This document shows positions 11,950 to 27,419 of a DNA stretch of 33,149 nucleotides, in pieces. A program made the position numbers and the translations under genes. The notes under the pieces were generated by a model, which saw only the letters and a list, made by a program, of their open reading frames with translations, searched no databases and had not been told where the DNA came from. Location of the stretch: positions 195,538 through 228,686 of the forward strand of contig JAFYER010000012.1 of assembly GCA_017544165.1 (NCBI GenBank). The letters are read 5' to 3'. The DNA comes from Bacilli bacterium (GTDB lineage Bacteria; Bacillota_I; Bacilli_A; RF39; UBA660). Each line of letters starts with the position of its first letter. The stretch's first letter is position 1.

Positions 11950-11981
11950 AAAAAAAAGAACTTATTAAGGTTCTTTTTTTT
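11950..11981. terminator. Bidirectional terminator between tRNA-Leu and the NlpC/P60-like gene
   Basis: AAAAAAAGAAC and GTTCTTTTTTT pair over an 8-base loop with A and T runs on both sides, so it can end transcription from tRNA-Leu (+) and from the convergent gene at 11980 (-). Confidence 0.85.
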
Positions 11982-12966
11982 ATTGGATTTTATATCTATA
12001 AACAGTTGGTATAGTAGCTATTGGCATAATTGCATCATATACAGCTACATTTGAGCCATTAAAGCCGCCATGAACAGCAAGACCATTACCAATATAGGTT
12101 GCAACATGTGGTTGACCATAACCATTGTTAGCATAGCGAAGTTCATCGCCAGGCATTGCTTCTAAAAGCGAAACTTCATATCTATTTTCATCAACAAATT
12201 TTTGACGATCACTATAAACATGTATTTGTTCTTTAATTCCTGGCGTGTTAAATAGTGACATAAAGAAAAACGTTTCACAGTTATATCCACTTATTCCAAC
12301 ATATGATAATGCTTGACTGGCTATCGGATTAGATGAAGAAAAACCAGCGTTTGAATAATATATTCCGTATTTTGTGGACATTTCGACACCATTATCAATT
12401 ACATAATTAATAATCTTATATGTTTTATTATTGTTATCATCATATGCTTCTAGAATATAAGTATGTTCCCCTACCTCATGAGAAAATGATGATACGAGAT
12501 TTTCTTCTTCATCGTAAACATGGTAACGACATTCATAAGATGTATTATCTTTACAATTTTTAACGAATGTAGCTATTTCTAAATAATCATTACTATTAAA
12601 TGTATTTTTATCATTTAATTCAATTTCCGGGCCAGAATTATCAATAACTGTTACAATACTTTCATATTCCAAACTGGTTTTTTTATCTTTTATAACTACT
12701 TCGTAAACACCAGCCTCTAAAGATTCATCAAAAGTTTCCAGTTTATCATTGCTTAAATAAGCAATTTCATAATTATTCAAATCAACCTTTTGATTAAACA
12801 TTTTTTCAACATCAAAAGCATCATTAGTATTAAAACTAAAATTATTTACAACTTTAATAGGTTTTTTATTATAAATATTTTTATTAAATCCCATAATAAT
12901 ACAAATTGTTAAAACAATTAATGTTATAATTAAAATAATTATTTTTTTATGTATCATTTTTTTCAT
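11980..12966 (-). CDS. Membrane-anchored NlpC/P60-like papain-fold hydrolase with Ig-like domains
   Basis: 328 residues from the ATG at 12966 with GGTG ten bases upstream. The frame extends to 13008, but that start lies upstream of an extended -10 (TGGTATAAT, 12988-12993) and would not be in the mRNA. Residues about 8-27 are an N-terminal anchor. Residues 100-195 look like one or two bacterial Ig-like domains (VTVIDNSGPEIEL...TYILEAYDDNNNKTYKI). The C-terminal domain has an NlpC/P60-like order: Cys230 in SGYNCETFF, MPGDELRYAN, then His287 in QPHVATYIGNG and His299 in AVHGG. Such enzymes cut peptidoglycan stem peptides outside the membrane. The sequence is divergent, so substrate and even activity are inferred. 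Confidence 0.72.
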   Translation of the reverse strand: MKKMIHKKIIILIITLIVLTICIIMGFNKNIYNKKPIKVVNNFSFNTNDAFDVEKMFNQKVDLNNYEIAYLSNDKLETFDESLEAGVYEVVIKDKKTSLEYESIVTVIDNSGPEIELNDKNTFNSNDYLEIATFVKNCKDNTSYECRYHVYDEEENLVSSFSHEVGEHTYILEAYDDNNNKTYKIINYVIDNGVEMSTKYGIYYSNAGFSSSNPIASQALSYVGISGYNCETFFFMSLFNTPGIKEQIHVYSDRQKFVDENRYEVSLLEAMPGDELRYANNGYGQPHVATYIGNGLAVHGGFNGSNVAVYDAIMPIATIPTVYRYKIQ

Positions 12967-13013
12967 TTTTTCTTGACACCGCTGGCTATTATACCATAAT
13001 TCCTTCAAAAAAG

Positions 13014-13453: not shown

Positions 13454-13678
13454 ATGAAAGAAAAAATATTGAATTTAATTGAGAAAATTAGGCCTTATCT
13501 AAATATGGATGGTGGTGATATTGAATTTATAAAATATGAAGACGGATATATTTATATAAAACTCATTGGTGCATGTAGTAGTTGCATGTACCAAGATAAC
13601 ACCATCAATGATAGTTTACTTGATTTTTTTAAAAATGAAATTCCTGAAATAAAAGGAATTATAAATGTTAGTATATAA
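13454..13678 (+). CDS. NifU C-terminal-domain Fe-S scaffold/carrier protein
   Basis: 74 residues from the ATG at 13454; a GTG at 13445 would add three residues but overlaps the GAGTGA Shine-Dalgarno. An extended -10 (TGGTATAAT, 13432-13437) is upstream. The NifU-type domain is clear: LNLIEKIRPYLNMDGGDIEF, then LIGACSSCMYQDNTI with the CxxC that holds a [4Fe-4S] cluster. Such proteins receive clusters from the SUF machinery and pass them to apoproteins, which links it to SufB in this window. It resembles Bacillus YutI in being next to a YutH-like gene. It overlaps the convergent YutH-like gene by 11 bases. Confidence 0.9.
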   Translation: MKEKILNLIEKIRPYLNMDGGDIEFIKYEDGYIYIKLIGACSSCMYQDNTINDSLLDFFKNEIPEIKGIINVSI

Positions 13679-14564
13679 GCCAGTCTATTTTTAATAATTT
13701 TGCATATGAGGATATTAACTTATATGCTTTTTTTAAAAATAGCTCATATTCATTCACCCCATTTAAAAATATGATTATTTTCTCACTATTTTCATGATTA
13801 TTAACAACTTTTTCATATACATCAAAATAATATGAAGGATATAAAAGTCTTGCAAAAAGCATATTGTAAGAATATGGTGTTAATCTTTTTGTTTTTAAAT
13901 ATGCCTGTAGTTCCCCATATGCATCATCTTTCGCCCAAAACATTGCCTTTAAATACTCGGCAATGTCCCTAACCTCAAGATCAATAATAAAAGATAAAGG
14001 ATTTAAATAATTTAATTGCGTGTTAGGAAAATATACTCTTTTATGTGATAAAACTGGCTTATCTTTCAAATAATCCCTATTAATCATATTCACATAATAT
14101 ATGCTATTTTCTGCTAAGCCTATGTAATAGTCAATACTGGAATTAATTATTTTATCAATTTTTATTTCTGATATTTGATTTTCAATATAATCTATTTTTT
14201 TACTCCATAGAATAGTCCAATTATTAGAATAATTGTCAAAAGTTATGTTTACCTTTCGATTTAATTCTAACATATCAAATAATGAATATTGCCTATTCTT
14301 ATCATGTACTTTCATTAAGAGATAATTAACTTCGTCTATTTTTGTTAAATAACTCTTTTTAATGTTTAATAATATTTCATGACAATAAATATTTTTTCTT
14401 TTTAAAAAGACTATATATTCAATTATTTTATTAACTGTCTTTTCATCATATAAAAAAGGTAAAAAATAATAATCATCATTATCAATTTTAAAATGATAAA
14501 CATTATTTTCAATATACAATTTCCCAATTATTAAATCGTAATAATATTCAATCGTATTTTTCAT
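13668..14564 (-). CDS. yutH: YutH/CotS-like spore coat-associated kinase-fold protein
   Basis: 298 residues. The pattern of the second half matches YutH: SSIDYYIGLAENSIYYV, LSHKRVYFPNTQLNYLNPLSFIID, VRDIAEYLKAMFW, then YNMLFARLLYPSYYFDVYEKV. YutH and CotS have an aminoglycoside-phosphotransferase-like fold and associate with the spore coat in Bacillus; their substrates are unknown. The N-terminal part (NDDYYFLPFLYDEKTVNKII, NYLLMKVHD) fits the N-lobe. There is no clear HxD catalytic loop, as in other YutH members, so it may not be an active kinase. There is no Shine-Dalgarno before the ATG, and TATAAT sits 5 bases upstream (14570-14575), so the mRNA may be nearly leaderless. Neighbours YutD, YunB and the NifU-like gene support the assignment. 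Confidence 0.6.
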   Translation of the reverse strand: MKNTIEYYYDLIIGKLYIENNVYHFKIDNDDYYFLPFLYDEKTVNKIIEYIVFLKRKNIYCHEILLNIKKSYLTKIDEVNYLLMKVHDKNRQYSLFDMLELNRKVNITFDNYSNNWTILWSKKIDYIENQISEIKIDKIINSSIDYYIGLAENSIYYVNMINRDYLKDKPVLSHKRVYFPNTQLNYLNPLSFIIDLEVRDIAEYLKAMFWAKDDAYGELQAYLKTKRLTPYSYNMLFARLLYPSYYFDVYEKVVNNHENSEKIIIFLNGVNEYELFLKKAYKLISSYAKLLKIDWLIY

Positions 14565-20764: not shown

Positions 20765-21814
20765 CTAATGAAATAGATTGTTTCTTTTCTTTTTTAATTT
20801 AACATAAATTGGTTCAGAATTAATAATTTTGTTTTTTAAATATACATTAACATAACCGACTTTTTCATTATTATTATAACTATCCTTTTTAACCAAATAA
20901 TATTTTATTTTTAATTCATTTTCCTCAGATTTTTTTAATGTAACATAAATATTTTTTTTAATATATAAATGATCATTAGCAAATATAGTATCATCAATTA
21001 CTTCAAAGTCTTTCTTATTTACAATACTTATTTTTTTATACATTTTGCTTACATAATTATAAAGTGATATATGATCTTGCCAATCATTGCTATCATTAAG
21101 AGTTACTACTACAACATTTATATCATTAATCTTAGCAGTAGTGACTAAAGTACGCTTTGCCTTAATTGTATAGCCAGTTTTTCCACCATTTATATAATCA
21201 TACTTCAAAAGTTTATTTTTACTATACCACTTATATGTTTTCTTATCGCTTTTAGCAGTATATTCTTTAGTGGAAAATATTTTTTTAAAAATCTTATTTT
21301 TCATCGCATAACTAGTAAGTATTGCCATATCATAAGCAGTTGAAATGTTACCATTACCATTTGTCTCTTCTAAACCATGACTATTGTAAAAAATGGTATT
21401 TTTCATTCCAAGTTTTTTGGCATACTCATTCATTAATGAAACAAAATTATCCATTGAACCAGAAATTGTTTTAGCAATCATTATTGCAGCGTCATTCCCA
21501 CTTCGCATCATCATTCCATATAGTAAATCCTTTAATGTTATTTTCTCACCTATTTCAATATAAATTGAACTTCCTACTGCTTTTAATATATCTTTATCTA
21601 CAGTAACTATAATATTTAAATCTCCTTTTTCAATAGCAATAATACAGGTCATTATTTTACTAATTGAGGCAATTAAGTGTTTATCATTAATATTTGTCCC
21701 ACTTAAAAATTGTTTAGAATCCATGTCCATCACAATATAACTTTGAGCACTAATTGCATTACAAGTATGATTGAAAGCAAAAATACATAGTAGAATTGCT
21801 AATATTCTTTTCAT
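20765..21814 (-). CDS. dacB: D-alanyl-D-alanine carboxypeptidase (DacB/DacF-like, PBP5 family)
   Basis: 349 residues with a signal peptide (about 1-20, ending CNA). It removes the terminal D-Ala from peptidoglycan stem peptides outside the membrane. All three serine-peptidase S11 motifs are present: SISK in LIASISKIMTCIIAIE (SxxK), SGN in MRSGNDAAIMIAKTI (SxN) and KTG in INGGKTGYTIKAKRT. The order dac - spmA - spmB - rluB matches Bacillus dacB, the spore-cortex carboxypeptidase, hence the symbol; DacF is the alternative. There is no Shine-Dalgarno before the ATG at 21814. The C-terminal ~100 residues look like the beta-rich PBP5 C-domain, ending in a Lys-rich stretch. Confidence 0.9.
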   Translation of the reverse strand: MKRILAILLCIFAFNHTCNAISAQSYIVMDMDSKQFLSGTNINDKHLIASISKIMTCIIAIEKGDLNIIVTVDKDILKAVGSSIYIEIGEKITLKDLLYGMMMRSGNDAAIMIAKTISGSMDNFVSLMNEYAKKLGMKNTIFYNSHGLEETNGNGNISTAYDMAILTSYAMKNKIFKKIFSTKEYTAKSDKKTYKWYSKNKLLKYDYINGGKTGYTIKAKRTLVTTAKINDINVVVVTLNDSNDWQDHISLYNYVSKMYKKISIVNKKDFEVIDDTIFANDHLYIKKNIYVTLKKSEENELKIKYYLVKKDSYNNNEKVGYVNVYLKNKIINSEPIYVKLKKKRNNLFH

Positions 21815-21902: not shown

Positions 21903-21932
21903 TTGACAAATTTACTATAAAATAGTAAATTT
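21903..21932 (+). promoter_or_regulatory. Promoter with overlapping 11-bp inverted repeat upstream of the protease-cohesin operon
   Basis: A consensus TTGACA (-35, 21903-21908) is followed at 17 bases by TAAATT (21926-21931), a moderate -10. The whole core is a perfect inverted repeat: AAATTTACTAT (21908-21918), 3-base centre, ATAGTAAATTT (21922-21932). A repressor dimer on this site would cover both promoter boxes. The site is 26 bases before the ATG at 21959, which has GGTGAT upstream. Confidence 0.6.
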
Positions 21933-21958: not shown

Positions 21959-24900
21959 ATGAAGAAAAAAATTTTAGTATTATCGTTAATAATGGTTATT
22001 GTGTTAGTTTTGGCCATTGTTAAGAATCACAATAATTCTTATGCATATGATGAAAATAATTTAATAATAAATCCCCTTTGGGAAGAATATAATTCTTTAT
22101 CTGAAGAAGAAAAAGCTACATGGGAATCAATTCCAGAACAATATGTTGTAGAGTTTAAAGCTCCTATAAAAAAAAGGGGGCAAAAAAGAAGCACTTCAGA
22201 AGCATTTAATCCGCCTAGTAGTTATGACTTACGAAATGTTGATGGTGTAAATTATGTCACACCAATGAAAAACCAAAGCTCTTTAGGATTATGTTGGGCT
22301 TTTGCTACAGTATCATCATTAGAAACAAATATATTAAAATTAGGTTTGAGAACGCCTGATAATCCAGCCATTTTTGCTGAAAATCAAATTGATTATATCT
22401 CTGCTAACCCTGCTTCTCATACAACGTATGTGAATTCTACAGTTCAAACTATAACTGAAGCCTATAATCCGTATCACCCTACAAGAAGTCTAGGAAGCGG
22501 CGGCAACTTTTTTGGCGAGACACTTACTCGCGGAGTTTCTGTACCCTATCAAAGTGGAATTTGGGGTTCTAGTTATTCTACTTCGTTAAAAACTCGTAAT
22601 TTAAAAGATGTATTTGATATGTCTGGAACAGATTACATAGCAACTGATTACGTAAACTTTCCATATATTAATAATCAAACCGCCTCTGAAGAAGCTAAAA
22701 TTGCATGGCGAAATTTAATTAAAGAGCACATTATGAATTATGGCTCTACTTATGTTGCAACTTTAGCCCCACAAAGATCATCAAGTTATGCTTGTTATGT
22801 ATATTATACAAATACCAGTGATCGCATGGGCCTTATCAATTGGACTGACGATTGTAAATATGGAAGTGCATATCCATATAGTGGTTCTCATGCCATGTCA
22901 ATCATTGGTTGGGATGATAATTACACCCAATCTTATTGTGCATTACCTGATTTAGGTAACACTAATACAACTTACAATCAAGAAACTTGCGAAGCAAATG
23001 GTGGTGTCTATCGAACAGTTATAGGTGCTTGGATACTAAAAAATTCATGGGGTAATTCTCAATCATATAATTTCGTTCACTTAGCATATGATTCAAAACT
23101 ATCTAGTGTTTCTGGAATCAAACGGACAATTGTTAAAGATTTTGATAACACCTATAATACCATTGGACCCAAAACAACTACAACAAATAGTACCACAAGA
23201 ATTACAGAGCAAAAATTTTATAAAACAAATAATACAGAAACTTTAAAAAGAATTTCATTTTTAACAAATGCAACAAATAATACTACCTATGAAGTTTATT
23301 TGATTAATGAATACACTAATAGGCAAATAAAACTTGGCACAGTTGGTCCAGTTAGTATTCCCGGAAGATATAGTTTAGATATCAATAACGACTATGAATT
23401 AATTGGTTCATCATTTAAAATAAAAGTTATCCCTTCAAACCAAACTTATTCAGATCAAGTTTCTAATATATATGCATTCACAAATAATACTATAGATGAT
23501 TTAGTAAATAATATAACTACTGTTAATAGTTCATCTATTTCAAGTGGTGTTTATTCTTATAATGTTACTACAAGAACAAGTAATGCCGAAAATGCTACAA
23601 AATTAACTTTTGAAATTACTGATCAATCAGGTAATGTACAACCTCTATTAGAGGGAAATGATTTTGGATATACTGTGGCAAATGCTGATACAACAACTTT
23701 AAAATCTGAAAATAATTTTGGGTATGGACTTTATCATATAAAAACATATGCAAATGGAAATCCTATGGGAACTGATGCATTTTCGATTGCCACTTCTCTA
23801 TCCGGATTTGGAACGGAAGCAAGCCCATATTTAATTCAATCAATTAATGATTTTGATTATATGTTTACTAGTAAATTTGGCGATAAATACTTTAAACTCG
23901 CTAACGATATAGATTTAAGTGACTATGATAATTTTACACCAATAAACAGCGAGAATTTTAATAATATGTTTACAGGAACGCTTGATGGCGATAACCATAT
24001 TATTAGTAACCTAACACAAAATACTGATAATGCCGGTTTCTTTGCAAGTATTTCTGGTACAATTAAGAATTTACATTTTGTAAATGCAGATATTACCGCA
24101 AATAATTATGGTGGTATACTTGCTGCTGAAGCAGAGTATGCTAATATTTCAAACATTTCAGTCGAAGGAACAATAACTGCAGGAAGTAATCAAGCTTATA
24201 TCGGCGGAATTGTCGGCAAGGCTAATAATACAACAATTGAAGAGTCATATAATAAAGCAACTTTAAATGGCGGTATTTCTGGAAGTTTTGTCGGAGATTT
24301 GCAAGAATATTCTAGCATTTTAAATTCATTTAATCTTGGCTTATTTGTTAATCCATCTCCAGCACTATCTTCTTTTGCTGGTAATATAGCAGCAAATCAT
24401 AACAGAATTGCTTATTTAATTGATTATAGTGGAAAAGAACATGATGATTGCTATAAAACATTGAGTCAGTCATATAGTGATAATGAACTAATTATAAATA
24501 ATGTATACTATTATAAAAGTAACACATGTGAATATTTAGGTAATGATTTAGATTATGATGAAATACGTGATATCAATAACTATGCAAACTTTGATAATAC
24601 AATATGGCACATCGAGGATAATCTTTTACCTACATTAATAAATAAGCCTGTTGTACTAACCTATAGTTTTGATATTGAAAAACTTACTAATGTAGTTGTT
24701 AATCAAACATATGATTTAAATTATGTAATGAATCCAGGAATAGTAACTTATCCCAATATCGAAATTACATCAAATGATATAACAAAAGCTAATTTTACAA
24801 ATAATAAGGTTACTACATACAAGCCTGGCTTAGTAACATTTACAATTAACGCACTAGACGGATCACGTACTAAAAAATCAATTGACATATATGTATTTGA

Positions 24901-25270
24901 TGTAAATTCATACACAGAAATCAATAATGAAAGTTTTATAACTTTTAAAACTAAAAACGAATTAAACACTCAAGCGCAAACAGATGGTATAATAATTGAA
25001 GCAAGTTCTACAATAGGTACCGGAGCAACAGTCACTTATAAAAAGGATAATGAAGTGATTAGTACATTCAAAGTAATAATAAAAGGTGATTTAAATGGTG
25101 ATGGCAATAACAATTCATTAGATTTATCAGCAATGTTAAATCATATTTCAGGTAAAAAAGGATTACAAAACGAATATTTAAATGCAGCCCAACTAAATAG
25201 TGATGTAAATGTTAATTCATTAGATTTGGCATACTTACTCAACAAAATAGCAGGAAAGGCAGGTTATTAG
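21959..25270 (+). CDS. Secreted papain-like (C1A) cysteine protease with C-terminal type I dockerin
   Basis: 1103 residues, ATG at 21959 with GGTGAT upstream. Signal peptide about 1-29; short propeptide; then the C1A domain (about 85-375): SYDLRNVDG, oxyanion Gln106 and Cys112 in NQSSLGLCWAFA, His311 in GSHAMSIIGWDD, Asn362 in LKNSWGNS. The triad is complete, so it should be an active protease. Residues about 615-770 hold GLUG-like adhesin repeats (GFGTEASPYLI, FKLANDIDLSDYDNF, FTGTLDGDNHIISNL). Residues about 900-1030 include a further beta-rich region. The last ~62 residues are a dockerin with two EF-hand-like repeats, GDLNGDGNNNSLDLSAMLNH and LNSDVNVNSLDLAYLLNK. In repeat 2 the first Ca ligand is Gln instead of Asp. 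The stop is one base from the cohesin gene's ATG. Confidence 0.9.
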   Translation: MKKKILVLSLIMVIVLVLAIVKNHNNSYAYDENNLIINPLWEEYNSLSEEEKATWESIPEQYVVEFKAPIKKRGQKRSTSEAFNPPSSYDLRNVDGVNYVTPMKNQSSLGLCWAFATVSSLETNILKLGLRTPDNPAIFAENQIDYISANPASHTTYVNSTVQTITEAYNPYHPTRSLGSGGNFFGETLTRGVSVPYQSGIWGSSYSTSLKTRNLKDVFDMSGTDYIATDYVNFPYINNQTASEEAKIAWRNLIKEHIMNYGSTYVATLAPQRSSSYACYVYYTNTSDRMGLINWTDDCKYGSAYPYSGSHAMSIIGWDDNYTQSYCALPDLGNTNTTYNQETCEANGGVYRTVIGAWILKNSWGNSQSYNFVHLAYDSKLSSVSGIKRTIVKDFDNTYNTIGPKTTTTNSTTRITEQKFYKTNNTETLKRISFLTNATNNTTYEVYLINEYTNRQIKLGTVGPVSIPGRYSLDINNDYELIGSSFKIKVIPSNQTYSDQVSNIYAFTNNTIDDLVNNITTVNSSSISSGVYSYNVTTRTSNAENATKLTFEITDQSGNVQPLLEGNDFGYTVANADTTTLKSENNFGYGLYHIKTYANGNPMGTDAFSIATSLSGFGTEASPYLIQSINDFDYMFTSKFGDKYFKLANDIDLSDYDNFTPINSENFNNMFTGTLDGDNHIISNLTQNTDNAGFFASISGTIKNLHFVNADITANNYGGILAAEAEYANISNISVEGTITAGSNQAYIGGIVGKANNTTIEESYNKATLNGGISGSFVGDLQEYSSILNSFNLGLFVNPSPALSSFAGNIAANHNRIAYLIDYSGKEHDDCYKTLSQSYSDNELIINNVYYYKSNTCEYLGNDLDYDEIRDINNYANFDNTIWHIEDNLLPTLINKPVVLTYSFDIEKLTNVVVNQTYDLNYVMNPGIVTYPNIEITSNDITKANFTNNKVTTYKPGLVTFTINALDGSRTKKSIDIYVFDVNSYTEINNESFITFKTKNELNTQAQTDGIIIEASSTIGTGATVTYKKDNEVISTFKVIIKGDLNGDGNNNSLDLSAMLNHISGKKGLQNEYLNAAQLNSDVNVNSLDLAYLLNKIAGKAGY

Positions 25271-25271
25271 T

Positions 25272-26702
25272 ATGAAGAAAATAATAAAAGTATTGATTTT
25301 TATCTTACTATTTCCAATCGTTAATGTTAATGCTTTTACAGCAAAATTGACTGGTTCTAATTATATTTCTGAAAATAGCAGTTTTACTATCAATTTAGAA
25401 TTGAGCAACACTAGCGATTTAACAGCTTTTGATGCTGAATTAAATTACGATTCTTCCCTACTCGAATTAACAAATACTTTGGGATTAAATAATTGGCAAA
25501 TGGTTGTTGGAACAAACATAGCTGGTGTTAATTTTTCAGGTATGAATGGTACAGGTAATATTTTAAGTTTAACATTTAAAGCTAAAAGCACATTCACCAT
25601 TGGCAAATCTACAACAATAAGCATTAATAACCCTGAAGGTTCAAATTCCAATGTTGAGTTACAAACCGGCAATAATGCTACATTTACTGTAAATGTTATA
25701 GATAATGTATTAAGTAGCCTATCACTATCAAATGGGACTTTATCCCCTACATTTAATCCAAATACTACGTCGTATACCGCTACTATTAACAGTAATTCGA
25801 CAACAATTTCTGCTACTGCTTCGGCATCAAGCTCGACAATAACAGGAATTGGTACAAAAGAACTTGCATATGGATTAAACAAGTTTGAAATAAAGGTTAC
25901 AGATAAACTTAATAATACGAAAGTATACACAATTAATATAACAAGAACTGATAATCGAAGTTCCGATAATACACTAAAAACATTAACAGTTTCTAATACT
26001 TCTATTTCATTTAACGGTTCATCTAACTATTATGATAATGTTGAAAATGATATAACCACCGTTACTATTAACGCTACAGCATCAAATTCAAAAGCTACAA
26101 TTGCTGGTACTGGAACTAAAAAATTAGATGTTGGATTAAATACATTTAATATTACTGTAACCGCAGAAAATGGCGCAACACAAACATATACAATCAAGAT
26201 TAATAGAAAAAGTCAAAATAAATCAAATAATAAGTCATTATCAACAGATAATAATTTATCATCACTAAGTATAAACGGTAAAAAAATAGATTTTGGCAAA
26301 AAAAAGAATTATACATACCATGTAGATAATGATGTAACAATTGCAAATATTGAGTATACAACTTCGAGCAATTTGGCAACTGTTACTCTAGATGGTGATA
26401 AAAATTTAAAAGTTGGAAACAATGTTTATTTTATCCTTGTATATGCTGAAAATGGTGACTTGAATGCCTATAGTTTAAATATAATTCGTGACGAAGAAAA
26501 AAGTGTAACGCCTGATGATAATAAAAAAGATAATACTAACACCATAGTTGATGATAATAATGATAAAAACAAAATCGAAAATGATGAAAAAGAACCGCTT
26601 AATAAAAAGGCAAAAACATTATTATTAGTTGCTGATATCCTGATAATTGTTCTTATCGCATATGTATTTATAATAAAATTTAAAAATAAAAACAAAAAAT
26701 AG
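25272..26702 (+). CDS. Membrane-anchored cohesin-domain protein with cadherin-like beta-sandwich repeats
   Basis: 476 residues, ATG at 25272, one base after the protease stop, so the two are translationally coupled. Signal peptide 1-21. Residues 22-145 have the cohesin pattern: FTINLELSNTSDLTAFDAEL, NYDSSLLELTN, GVNFSGMNGTGNILSLTFKAK. Three cadherin-like beta-sandwich domains follow (about 147-226, 230-312, 325-403), each with the LxxLxxSNG/S start, a YTATI or YDNVEND-type strand, a GLNxFxIxV core and a final YTINITR-like strand. An acidic linker (about 410-445) leads to a C-terminal membrane helix (TLLLVADILIIVLIAYVFIIKF) and a Lys-rich cytosolic end. The plan is a receptor on a stalk: cohesin outward, anchored in the membrane. 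The obvious ligand is the dockerin of the gene before it. Calling the first domain cohesin rests on motif reading. Confidence 0.82.
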   Translation: MKKIIKVLIFILLFPIVNVNAFTAKLTGSNYISENSSFTINLELSNTSDLTAFDAELNYDSSLLELTNTLGLNNWQMVVGTNIAGVNFSGMNGTGNILSLTFKAKSTFTIGKSTTISINNPEGSNSNVELQTGNNATFTVNVIDNVLSSLSLSNGTLSPTFNPNTTSYTATINSNSTTISATASASSSTITGIGTKELAYGLNKFEIKVTDKLNNTKVYTINITRTDNRSSDNTLKTLTVSNTSISFNGSSNYYDNVENDITTVTINATASNSKATIAGTGTKKLDVGLNTFNITVTAENGATQTYTIKINRKSQNKSNNKSLSTDNNLSSLSINGKKIDFGKKKNYTYHVDNDVTIANIEYTTSSNLATVTLDGDKNLKVGNNVYFILVYAENGDLNAYSLNIIRDEEKSVTPDDNKKDNTNTIVDDNNDKNKIENDEKEPLNKKAKTLLLVADILIIVLIAYVFIIKFKNKNKK

Positions 26703-26732: not shown

Positions 26733-27419
26733 CTAATGAATCATTCTAGACAATAACAATAGCATAACAGCATATGTATTATGAATAAAATGGCATGTCA
26801 TTGGCACACATATATTTTCCGTTTTAACGAACATATATGCAAAATACATTCCACAAAAAACATACGGTAATCCGATTAATATGGTTTCAGCCAAAGAGAT
26901 TTCACCTATAGTATGTAAAAAGCCAAAAACTGAGCCAGATATAATAATAAATATATTATCATTTTTTATAATTCTTCGAATAGATCCGCGAAATAATAAC
27001 TCTTCAACAAAAGGTGCATAAATAATTGCAATAAACAAAAGAATTAATACAGGTAGTTTTTCTATTTCTTGTTGATTAAGTGATGTTGATGGATTACGCA
27101 TGATAATCGTAACTATATAAGATATAAACAAATAGATAACAAACATAATAATCTGATTTTTTAAAATATATTTTAAATATTCTTTTATATTTTTTTTAAA
27201 AAAAACAAAGTCTTTCTTTAATCGCTTTTGAAAAAAGAAAAACAAAACTGTTATATTAAAAAAATAGTATGAAAAACTTATTATTGTTTTATAATTCGGA
27301 AAATAATATTCTAAGCAAGAATAAATAATAATTGAAATTAATAATACTAATATAGCTTTTATGCCTAAAAAAATGGTTTGTTTATTACTTATTTCTTTAT
27401 CAAGTTTAAGATTACTCAT
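26733..27419 (-). CDS. CPBP family intramembrane metalloprotease
   Basis: 228 residues, six to eight membrane helices, ATG at 27419 with GAGGGTT upstream. The CPBP/Abi signature motifs are all present: EELLFRGSIRR (EExxxR), FGFLHTIGEI (FxxxH) and CHFIHNTYAV (HxxxN). The family includes CAAX prenyl-protease-like enzymes that cut within the membrane and, in Firmicutes, bacteriocin immunity and signal-release proteins. It starts 2 bases after the CBS-PPase stop, so the two are one transcript; no functional link is evident. Confidence 0.93.
   Translation of the reverse strand: MSNLKLDKEISNKQTIFLGIKAILVLLISIIIYSCLEYYFPNYKTIISFSYYFFNITVLFFFFQKRLKKDFVFFKKNIKEYLKYILKNQIIMFVIYLFISYIVTIIMRNPSTSLNQQEIEKLPVLILLFIAIIYAPFVEELLFRGSIRRIIKNDNIFIIISGSVFGFLHTIGEISLAETILIGLPYVFCGMYFAYMFVKTENICVPMTCHFIHNTYAVMLLLLSRMIH

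What the first reader, a model, noticed from the sequence alone, without database searches (positions are those of the whole stretch)
21959..26702. Two-gene dockerin-protease / cohesin-anchor system: a minimal cellulosome-like device built around a cysteine protease
The first gene has a complete papain triad (Q106, C112, H311, N362) and a C-terminal type I dockerin; the second, starting one base later, has a cohesin-like domain, three cadherin-like beta-sandwich domains and a membrane anchor. Cohesin and dockerin are known partners in cellulosomes, which carry glycoside hydrolases. Here the pair would dock a protease on the surface of an organism with no polysaccharide-degrading genes in the window. 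The pairing of enzyme and receptor in one coupled operon is inferred to be functional.
Basis: partly seen in the sequence, partly recalled or inferred. Interest (0 to 1): 0.78.

Follow-up and report, generated by a model that had tools for sequence, protein, structure and literature searches.

The report
Protease docked by dockerin–cohesin anchor
A small-genome bacterium makes a secreted protein-cutting enzyme and, from the next gene, a membrane-bound socket that very probably holds it on the cell surface; the same plug-and-socket gene pair, mostly carrying a cell-wall enzyme instead, recurs through most of its relatives, far from the cellulose-digesting machines where such plugs are usually studied.

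Summary
P1 (21959-25270, 1103 aa) is a secreted papain-type protease with an intact Q/C/H/N active site and a C-terminal type I dockerin. P2 (25272-26702, 476 aa), one base later, has a cohesin domain (AF2 pLDDT 84; best PDB matches are cohesins, Z up to 16.6), three cadherin-like domains and a C-terminal transmembrane helix. The genome held (88% complete) has exactly two Pfam-detectable dockerins and two cohesins, arranged as two such operons: this protease, and an Atl-type glucosaminidase. In 145 genomes (144 genera) of the family, 109 have dockerins. In fetched loci, 96 enzyme-dockerin genes are followed, usually within 25 bp, by a signal-peptide/TM anchor. Dockerins and cohesins co-evolve (Mantel 0.74; 0.59 given the enzyme), and covariation falls on known recognition positions (48 of the top 100 couplings in 8 of 60 columns, against 12 for the rest of the anchor). 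A one-enzyme/one-anchor docking system is well supported; 'cellulosome' is the wrong label. Binding, activity and substrate are untested. A dockerin-borne cysteine peptidase binding a surface cohesin is known in Ruminococcus flavefaciens, so this is a new variant of a known kind, surprisingly widespread.

The parts
21959..25270 (+). P1: secreted papain-type (C1) cysteine protease with C-terminal type I dockerin, 1103 aa
21959..22045 (+). P1 N-terminal signal/hydrophobic segment (about aa 1-29)
   Evidence: read from the sequence
22214..23158 (+). P1 papain-fold catalytic domain (about aa 86-400) with Q106, C112, H311, N362
23798..24268 (+). P1 GLUG-repeat region (about aa 614-770), non-catalytic
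   Evidence: Glug, 2 stretches, just under cut-off; 3n6z match
25082..25249 (+). P1 type I dockerin (aa 1042-1097); recognition positions S-L / L-N repeated in both halves
25253..25259 (+). GGAAAGG, likely ribosome-binding site of P2, inside the P1 coding sequence
   Evidence: read from the sequence
25272..26702 (+). P2: cohesin-bearing membrane anchor, 476 aa
25332..25706 (+). P2 cohesin domain (aa 21-145)
25707..26471 (+). P2 three cadherin-like beta-sandwich domains (about aa 146-400)
   Evidence: PF12733, three stretches; outer limits approximate
26616..26681 (+). P2 C-terminal transmembrane helix (about aa 449-470), basic tail after it
   Evidence: hydropathy; sequence
21903..21931 (+). 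promoter-like TTGACA-17-TAAATT upstream of P1 (consensus match only)
   Evidence: promoter-like matches in the region are no more than chance gives

Best explanation
A two-gene, one-enzyme surface-docking system. P1 is exported and folds into a papain-type protease, a GLUG/beta-rich middle and a Ca-dependent dockerin. P2 is exported and stays in the membrane by its C-terminal helix, with cadherin-like domains as a spacer and an outermost cohesin. The P1 dockerin binds the P2 cohesin and holds the protease on the cell surface, probably to digest extracellular protein near the cell. The genes are probably translated from one message, with P2's ribosome-binding site inside P1, which would keep plug and socket in step. 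The pair is one of two such systems found in the genome; the other holds an Atl-type glucosaminidase, and its dockerin has different recognition residues, so each enzyme probably goes to its own anchor. Shown here: domains, active-site residues, predicted cohesin fold, gene adjacency, recurrence and co-evolution. Inferred: binding, calcium dependence, export, proteolysis, substrate and in vivo specificity.
For: Only two dockerins and two cohesins were found in the genome, forming two adjacent pairs. In 145 family genomes 109 have dockerins and 73 cohesins; 49 of 101 listed cohesins lie 90-158 bp after a dockerin on the same strand. 96 enzyme-dockerin/anchor pairs, 93 with a gap of 30 bp or less. 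Protease-dockerin genes followed by an anchor recur in G007, G012, G032, G044 (three tandem proteases, one anchor), G115 and L091, L094, L099, L102, L105, L137, L146, L153, L163, some labelled Clostridia, with active-site residues intact where aligned. Co-evolution: Mantel dockerin-cohesin 0.74, 0.59 given enzyme, 0.56 given anchor C-terminus; dockerin-anchor C-terminus given cohesin 0.15. Top couplings fall on dockerin positions 10, 11, 17, 18 of both repeats: 48/100 for cohesin, 12/100 for the anchor C-terminus (13.3 expected). They also fall on P2 residues 50-53, which by motif alignment correspond to the strand holding Asn37/Asp39 of the C. thermocellum cohesin, known contacts (PMC5772552). 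P2 models as a cohesin.
Against: No binding data. The AF2 run of dockerin plus cohesin in one chain was uninformative (dockerin pLDDT 39-57 by ten-residue blocks). P2's own PF00963 score is marginal. The second dockerin loop has Q instead of D at position 1. G008 has a protease-dockerin with no anchor next to it. Genes in one operon share history, so part of the tree correlation need not be contact; the enzyme also shows some coupling to the recognition columns (24/100), and in the 69-pair subset with a classic cohesin motif the contrast is weaker (29 for cohesin, 13 anchor C-terminus, 25 enzyme).
Confidence: 0.84

Rival explanations
1. The dockerin and cohesin bind, but mainly across cells or to other ligands: P2 is an adhesin whose cohesin captures dockerin proteins of neighbouring bacteria, and P1 is released to dock elsewhere.
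For: P2 carries three cadherin-like domains, as adhesins do. Many related genomes and gut neighbours carry dockerins and cohesins.
Against: The two genes stay adjacent across genera in different flanking contexts, and co-evolution is with the adjacent gene. Recognition residues differ between the two pairs of the same genome.
Confidence: 0.08
2. Co-evolution reflects only shared operon history; the dockerin binds a different partner or is vestigial, and P2 is an unrelated surface protein.
For: The second Ca-loop is slightly degenerate and P2's own Pfam cohesin score is marginal.
Against: Couplings concentrate on recognition positions for the cohesin domain but not for the rest of the same anchor, which shared history alone does not predict. 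The genome's only other detected cohesin sits with the other dockerin.
Confidence: 0.06
3. A true cellulosome or its remnant: the anchor serves several carbohydrate enzymes and the protease is an accessory.
For: Dockerin and cohesin families are those of cellulosomes; cellulosomes can carry peptidases and serpins (PMC5301203, PMC3573020).
Against: One cohesin per anchor, two dockerins in the genome, neither on a plant-polysaccharide enzyme. The neighbouring window genes with Pfam matches are housekeeping or of unknown function. About 12% of the genome is missing, so this is not absolute.
Confidence: 0.02

Closest known systems
Ruminococcus flavefaciens cysteine peptidase with X-dockerin bound to the surface cohesin ScaE (PMC3573020, PMC5301203)
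   Same: A dockerin-borne cysteine peptidase held on the cell surface by a single-cohesin anchor; binding reported experimentally.
   Different: NlpC/P60 fold rather than papain C1; X-dockerin; sortase-linked anchor; embedded in a cellulosome system of over 220 dockerin proteins; ScaE also anchors the cellulosome.
Clostridium perfringens non-cellulosomal cohesin modules of secreted glycoside hydrolases (2vo8, 2jh2, 2w1n)
   Same: Nearest cohesin folds to P2 by structure; not part of a cellulosome.
   Different: There the cohesin sits on the enzyme itself; here it sits on a dedicated membrane anchor.
Cell-surface anchoring cohesins OlpA and OlpC of Clostridium thermocellum (3ul4, 4dh2)
   Same: Type I cohesin on a surface protein, solved in complex with a dockerin; OlpA is among the best profile matches.
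   Different: Part of a cellulosome organism; different spacer and anchor domains (from memory).
Archaeoglobus fulgidus non-cellulosomal cohesin (2xdh)
   Same: Cohesin outside cellulosomes; matched by fold and profile.
   Different: Archaeal; from memory its partner arrangement differs.

Membership tests
Papain-family peptidase (C1, PF00112) | profile match and Gln-Cys-His-Asn active site | tested here: met
   32.2 bits against 20.7; Q106, C112, H311, N362 invariant
Papain-family peptidase (C1, PF00112) | proteolytic activity | not testable with these tools
   needs the purified enzyme
Type I dockerin (PF00404) | two Ca-loop/helix repeats with profile match | tested here: met
   33.8 bits against 22.9, aa 1042-1097; second loop has Q at position 1
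Cohesin (PF00963) | profile match above curated cut-off | tested here: met
   24.6 bits against 24.1 in the genome search, marginal and not listed by hmmscan; 47.5 bits in the anchor next to the same-genus protease-dockerin of G007
Cohesin (PF00963) | cohesin beta-sandwich fold | tested here: met
   AF2 pLDDT 84.3; top PDB matches cohesins, Z 16.6, 1.9 A
Cohesin (PF00963) | binds a dockerin | not testable with these tools
   indirect support from residue covariation only
Cellulosome | scaffoldin with several cohesins | tested here: not met
   one cohesin per anchor, two anchors in the genome
Cellulosome | dockerins on plant-polysaccharide enzymes | tested here: not met
   two dockerins only, on a protease and an Atl-type glucosaminidase; genome 88% complete
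Sortase-anchored cohesin | LPXTG-type motif before the C-terminal helix | tested here: not met
   none visible in P2 aa 440-476, although the genome has three sortase matches

The most novel reading that the evidence does not exclude
In this family of small-genome Bacilli, cohesin-dockerin is a general one-enzyme/one-anchor surface-display system, and the receptor domain has diverged with its dockerin into several mutually exclusive classes (including short Ig-like receptors no longer recognisable as cohesins by Pfam), giving about a hundred natural, probably orthogonal plug-socket pairs.
Probability: 0.5. Interest if true: 0.75.

Novelty: new variant of a known kind. Interest (0 to 1): 0.6.

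Why it matters
Non-cellulosomal cohesins and dockerins have been known as scattered, mostly unexplained modules. Here they form a compact, repeated gene unit whose plug and socket co-vary at recognition positions, so their role (docking one secreted enzyme) and the way specificity evolves become directly testable. It would also explain how small-genome bacteria keep a protease and a cell-wall hydrolase at their surface, and offers a supply of possibly orthogonal binding pairs for biotechnology.

Tried and rejected
Cohesin anchors as a substitute for missing sortases: rejected, sortase matches in 129 of 145 genomes including this one. AF2 of dockerin and cohesin in one chain (read through the stop, with the signal peptide as linker): dockerin part of low confidence, no conclusion; earlier alignments for it misplaced the cohesins onto the dockerin and were not used. 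The PDB match of P1 to a 'putative immunoglobulin A1 protease' (3n6z) covers the GLUG region, not the catalytic domain, so it is no evidence of IgA cleavage. Plasmid search with P2: nothing. Two papers on Tenericutes/RF39 and small-genome gut bacteria do not mention dockerins or cohesins; keyword searches found no description of this system, within an open-access library only.

Full report
What is there. P1 (21959-25270) and P2 (25272-26702) are the only substantial + strand genes between a D-alanyl-D-alanine carboxypeptidase gene (20765-21814, -) and a CPBP/Rce1-like membrane protease gene (26733-27419, -), so they form a self-contained pair. One base separates them, and a GGAAAGG site for P2 sits in the last codons of P1. 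P1 has a signal segment, a papain-type domain whose Q106, C112, H311 and N362 are invariant in an alignment of eleven sequences, a GLUG-like region and a type I dockerin (33.8 bits). It is the only Peptidase_C1 match in the genome held.

The receptor. Pfam's cohesin model scores P2 just above cut-off in the genome search (24.6 against 24.1 bits) and hmmscan omits it, so I tested the fold. AF2 with 11 sequences gave pLDDT 84 for aa 21-255. Foldseek's best matches were C. perfringens cohesins, and the structural aligner's 25 best rows are all cohesin entries, with 2vo8 at Z 16.6, 1.9 A over 122 residues. A profile of the same alignment found PDB cohesins by sequence (5nrm 6e-9, 3ul4 OlpA 5.6e-8). 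Three cadherin-like domains and a C-terminal transmembrane helix follow; there is no LPXTG motif.

The genome. The 1.05 Mb assembly, 88% complete, has two dockerins and two cohesins. The second pair (L005 4934-6937 and 6952-8352) is an SH3-glucosaminidase-cadherin-dockerin protein (Atl-type autolysin match 6fxo, E 2e-14) followed 14 bp later by a cohesin-cadherin-TM anchor. Recognition positions differ: S-L and L-N in both repeats of P1, I-Q/I-V and Q-K in the second dockerin.

The family. In 145 genomes of 144 genera, 109 have dockerins and 73 cohesins; in a sample of the class 37 of 149 have dockerins, 13 of those 37 being members of this family. 49 of 101 listed cohesin hits lie 90-158 bp behind a dockerin. 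Reading about 100 loci gave 125 of 137 dockerin genes with a same-strand neighbour within 250 bp (a few loci were fetched twice), and, after removing those repeats, 96 with a signal-peptide/TM anchor, 93 of them within 30 bp. The 96 come from the family and from genome-contig loci; 93 distinct pairs entered the co-evolution tests. Loci were chosen because they carry Pfam dockerin or cohesin hits, with paired sites fetched first, so these counts describe the pairs and are not an unbiased rate. Most scanned dockerin proteins are of the SH3_3/glucosaminidase type (40 of 56 have SH3_3). Protease homologues occur in 9 of 145 genomes; of seven whose 3' end can be read, six have an anchor next to them, in differing flanking contexts. 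Similar pairs occur in contigs labelled Bacilli, Lachnospiraceae and Clostridia, with intact active sites where aligned.

Co-evolution. For 93 pairs the dockerin and cohesin distance matrices correlate at 0.74, at 0.59 after removing the enzyme and 0.56 after removing the anchor's C-terminal part, while the dockerin's correlation with that C-terminal part falls to 0.15 once the cohesin is removed (smallest attainable p with 299 permutations 0.003). Listing pairs by dockerin similarity shows matched classes: DLLxVQKxILG dockerins with cohesins of the LGSWxxxLNYDSS kind, DYVxIKNxIMG dockerins with short receptors of the AGKFSVTSSNxxVLSGG kind, NSADLLRxRQxLLG dockerins with AWNIKITSxGNTNGC receptors. 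Mutual information (APC-corrected) puts 48 of the top 100 dockerin-cohesin couplings in the eight recognition columns (positions 10, 11, 17, 18 of both repeats), against 12 for the anchor C-terminus and 24 for the enzyme, with 13.3 expected from column number. In the subset with a recognisable YD-type cohesin motif (69 pairs) the contrast is weaker (29, 13, 25). Position 13 of each repeat also ranks high. On P2 the coupled residues include 50-53 and 91-96. By motif alignment, 50-53 fall on the strand that carries Asn37 and Asp39 in the C. thermocellum cohesin, which contact the dockerin Ser/Thr pair (PMC5772552); the match of 91-96 to contact residues is from memory. The recognition columns were taken from published dockerins, but I first looked at the coupling list without a control and then added the anchor, enzyme and subset comparisons.

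Mechanism and limits. The best reading is a private anchor for one secreted enzyme. It is not a cellulosome. It is not a sortase substitute, since sortases are common in these genomes. What the protease cuts is unknown; the 'IgA1 protease' name of a PDB match concerns a non-catalytic region. Binding, activity and location need experiments; the in silico complex attempt failed to give a confident dockerin.

Compared with what is known. The nearest precedent is the R. flavefaciens cysteine peptidase whose X-dockerin binds the surface cohesin ScaE (PMC3573020, PMC5301203), with a different peptidase fold, dockerin type and anchor. I found no account of the repeated one-enzyme/one-anchor operon in Bacilli, within an open-access library.

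Noticed in passing
L005 4934-8352 (G000:C3:16933-20351): Second enzyme-dockerin/cohesin-anchor operon of the same genome: SH3, Atl-type glucosaminidase, cadherin-like, dockerin, then cohesin-cadherin-TM anchor.
   Followed up: yes
L221, L223-L228, L231, L232, L236, L238, L243, L245, L269 (anchors next to dockerins): A class of dockerins (DYVxIKNxIMG) is paired with short Ig-like receptors that were not listed as Pfam cohesin matches at those sites; they may be reduced cohesins or a different fold that took over dockerin binding.
   Followed up: partly
L083 4014-13953: Three tandem protease-dockerin genes with a LysM-like insertion inside the catalytic domain, followed by one long cohesin anchor.
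   Followed up: partly
L250-L254: Very large surface proteins (open frames up to about 2,900 aa) carry a cohesin and a dockerin in the same chain in G029, G010, G083, G126 and G131.
   Followed up: no
L111 4039-11796: Three successive papain-type dockerin proteases in a contig labelled Clostridia, followed by a further secreted protein cut off by the contig end.
   Followed up: no
window 11980-13008 and 13668-14564, - strand: Two proteins (342 and 298 aa) without any Pfam match at E 1e-5.
   Followed up: no
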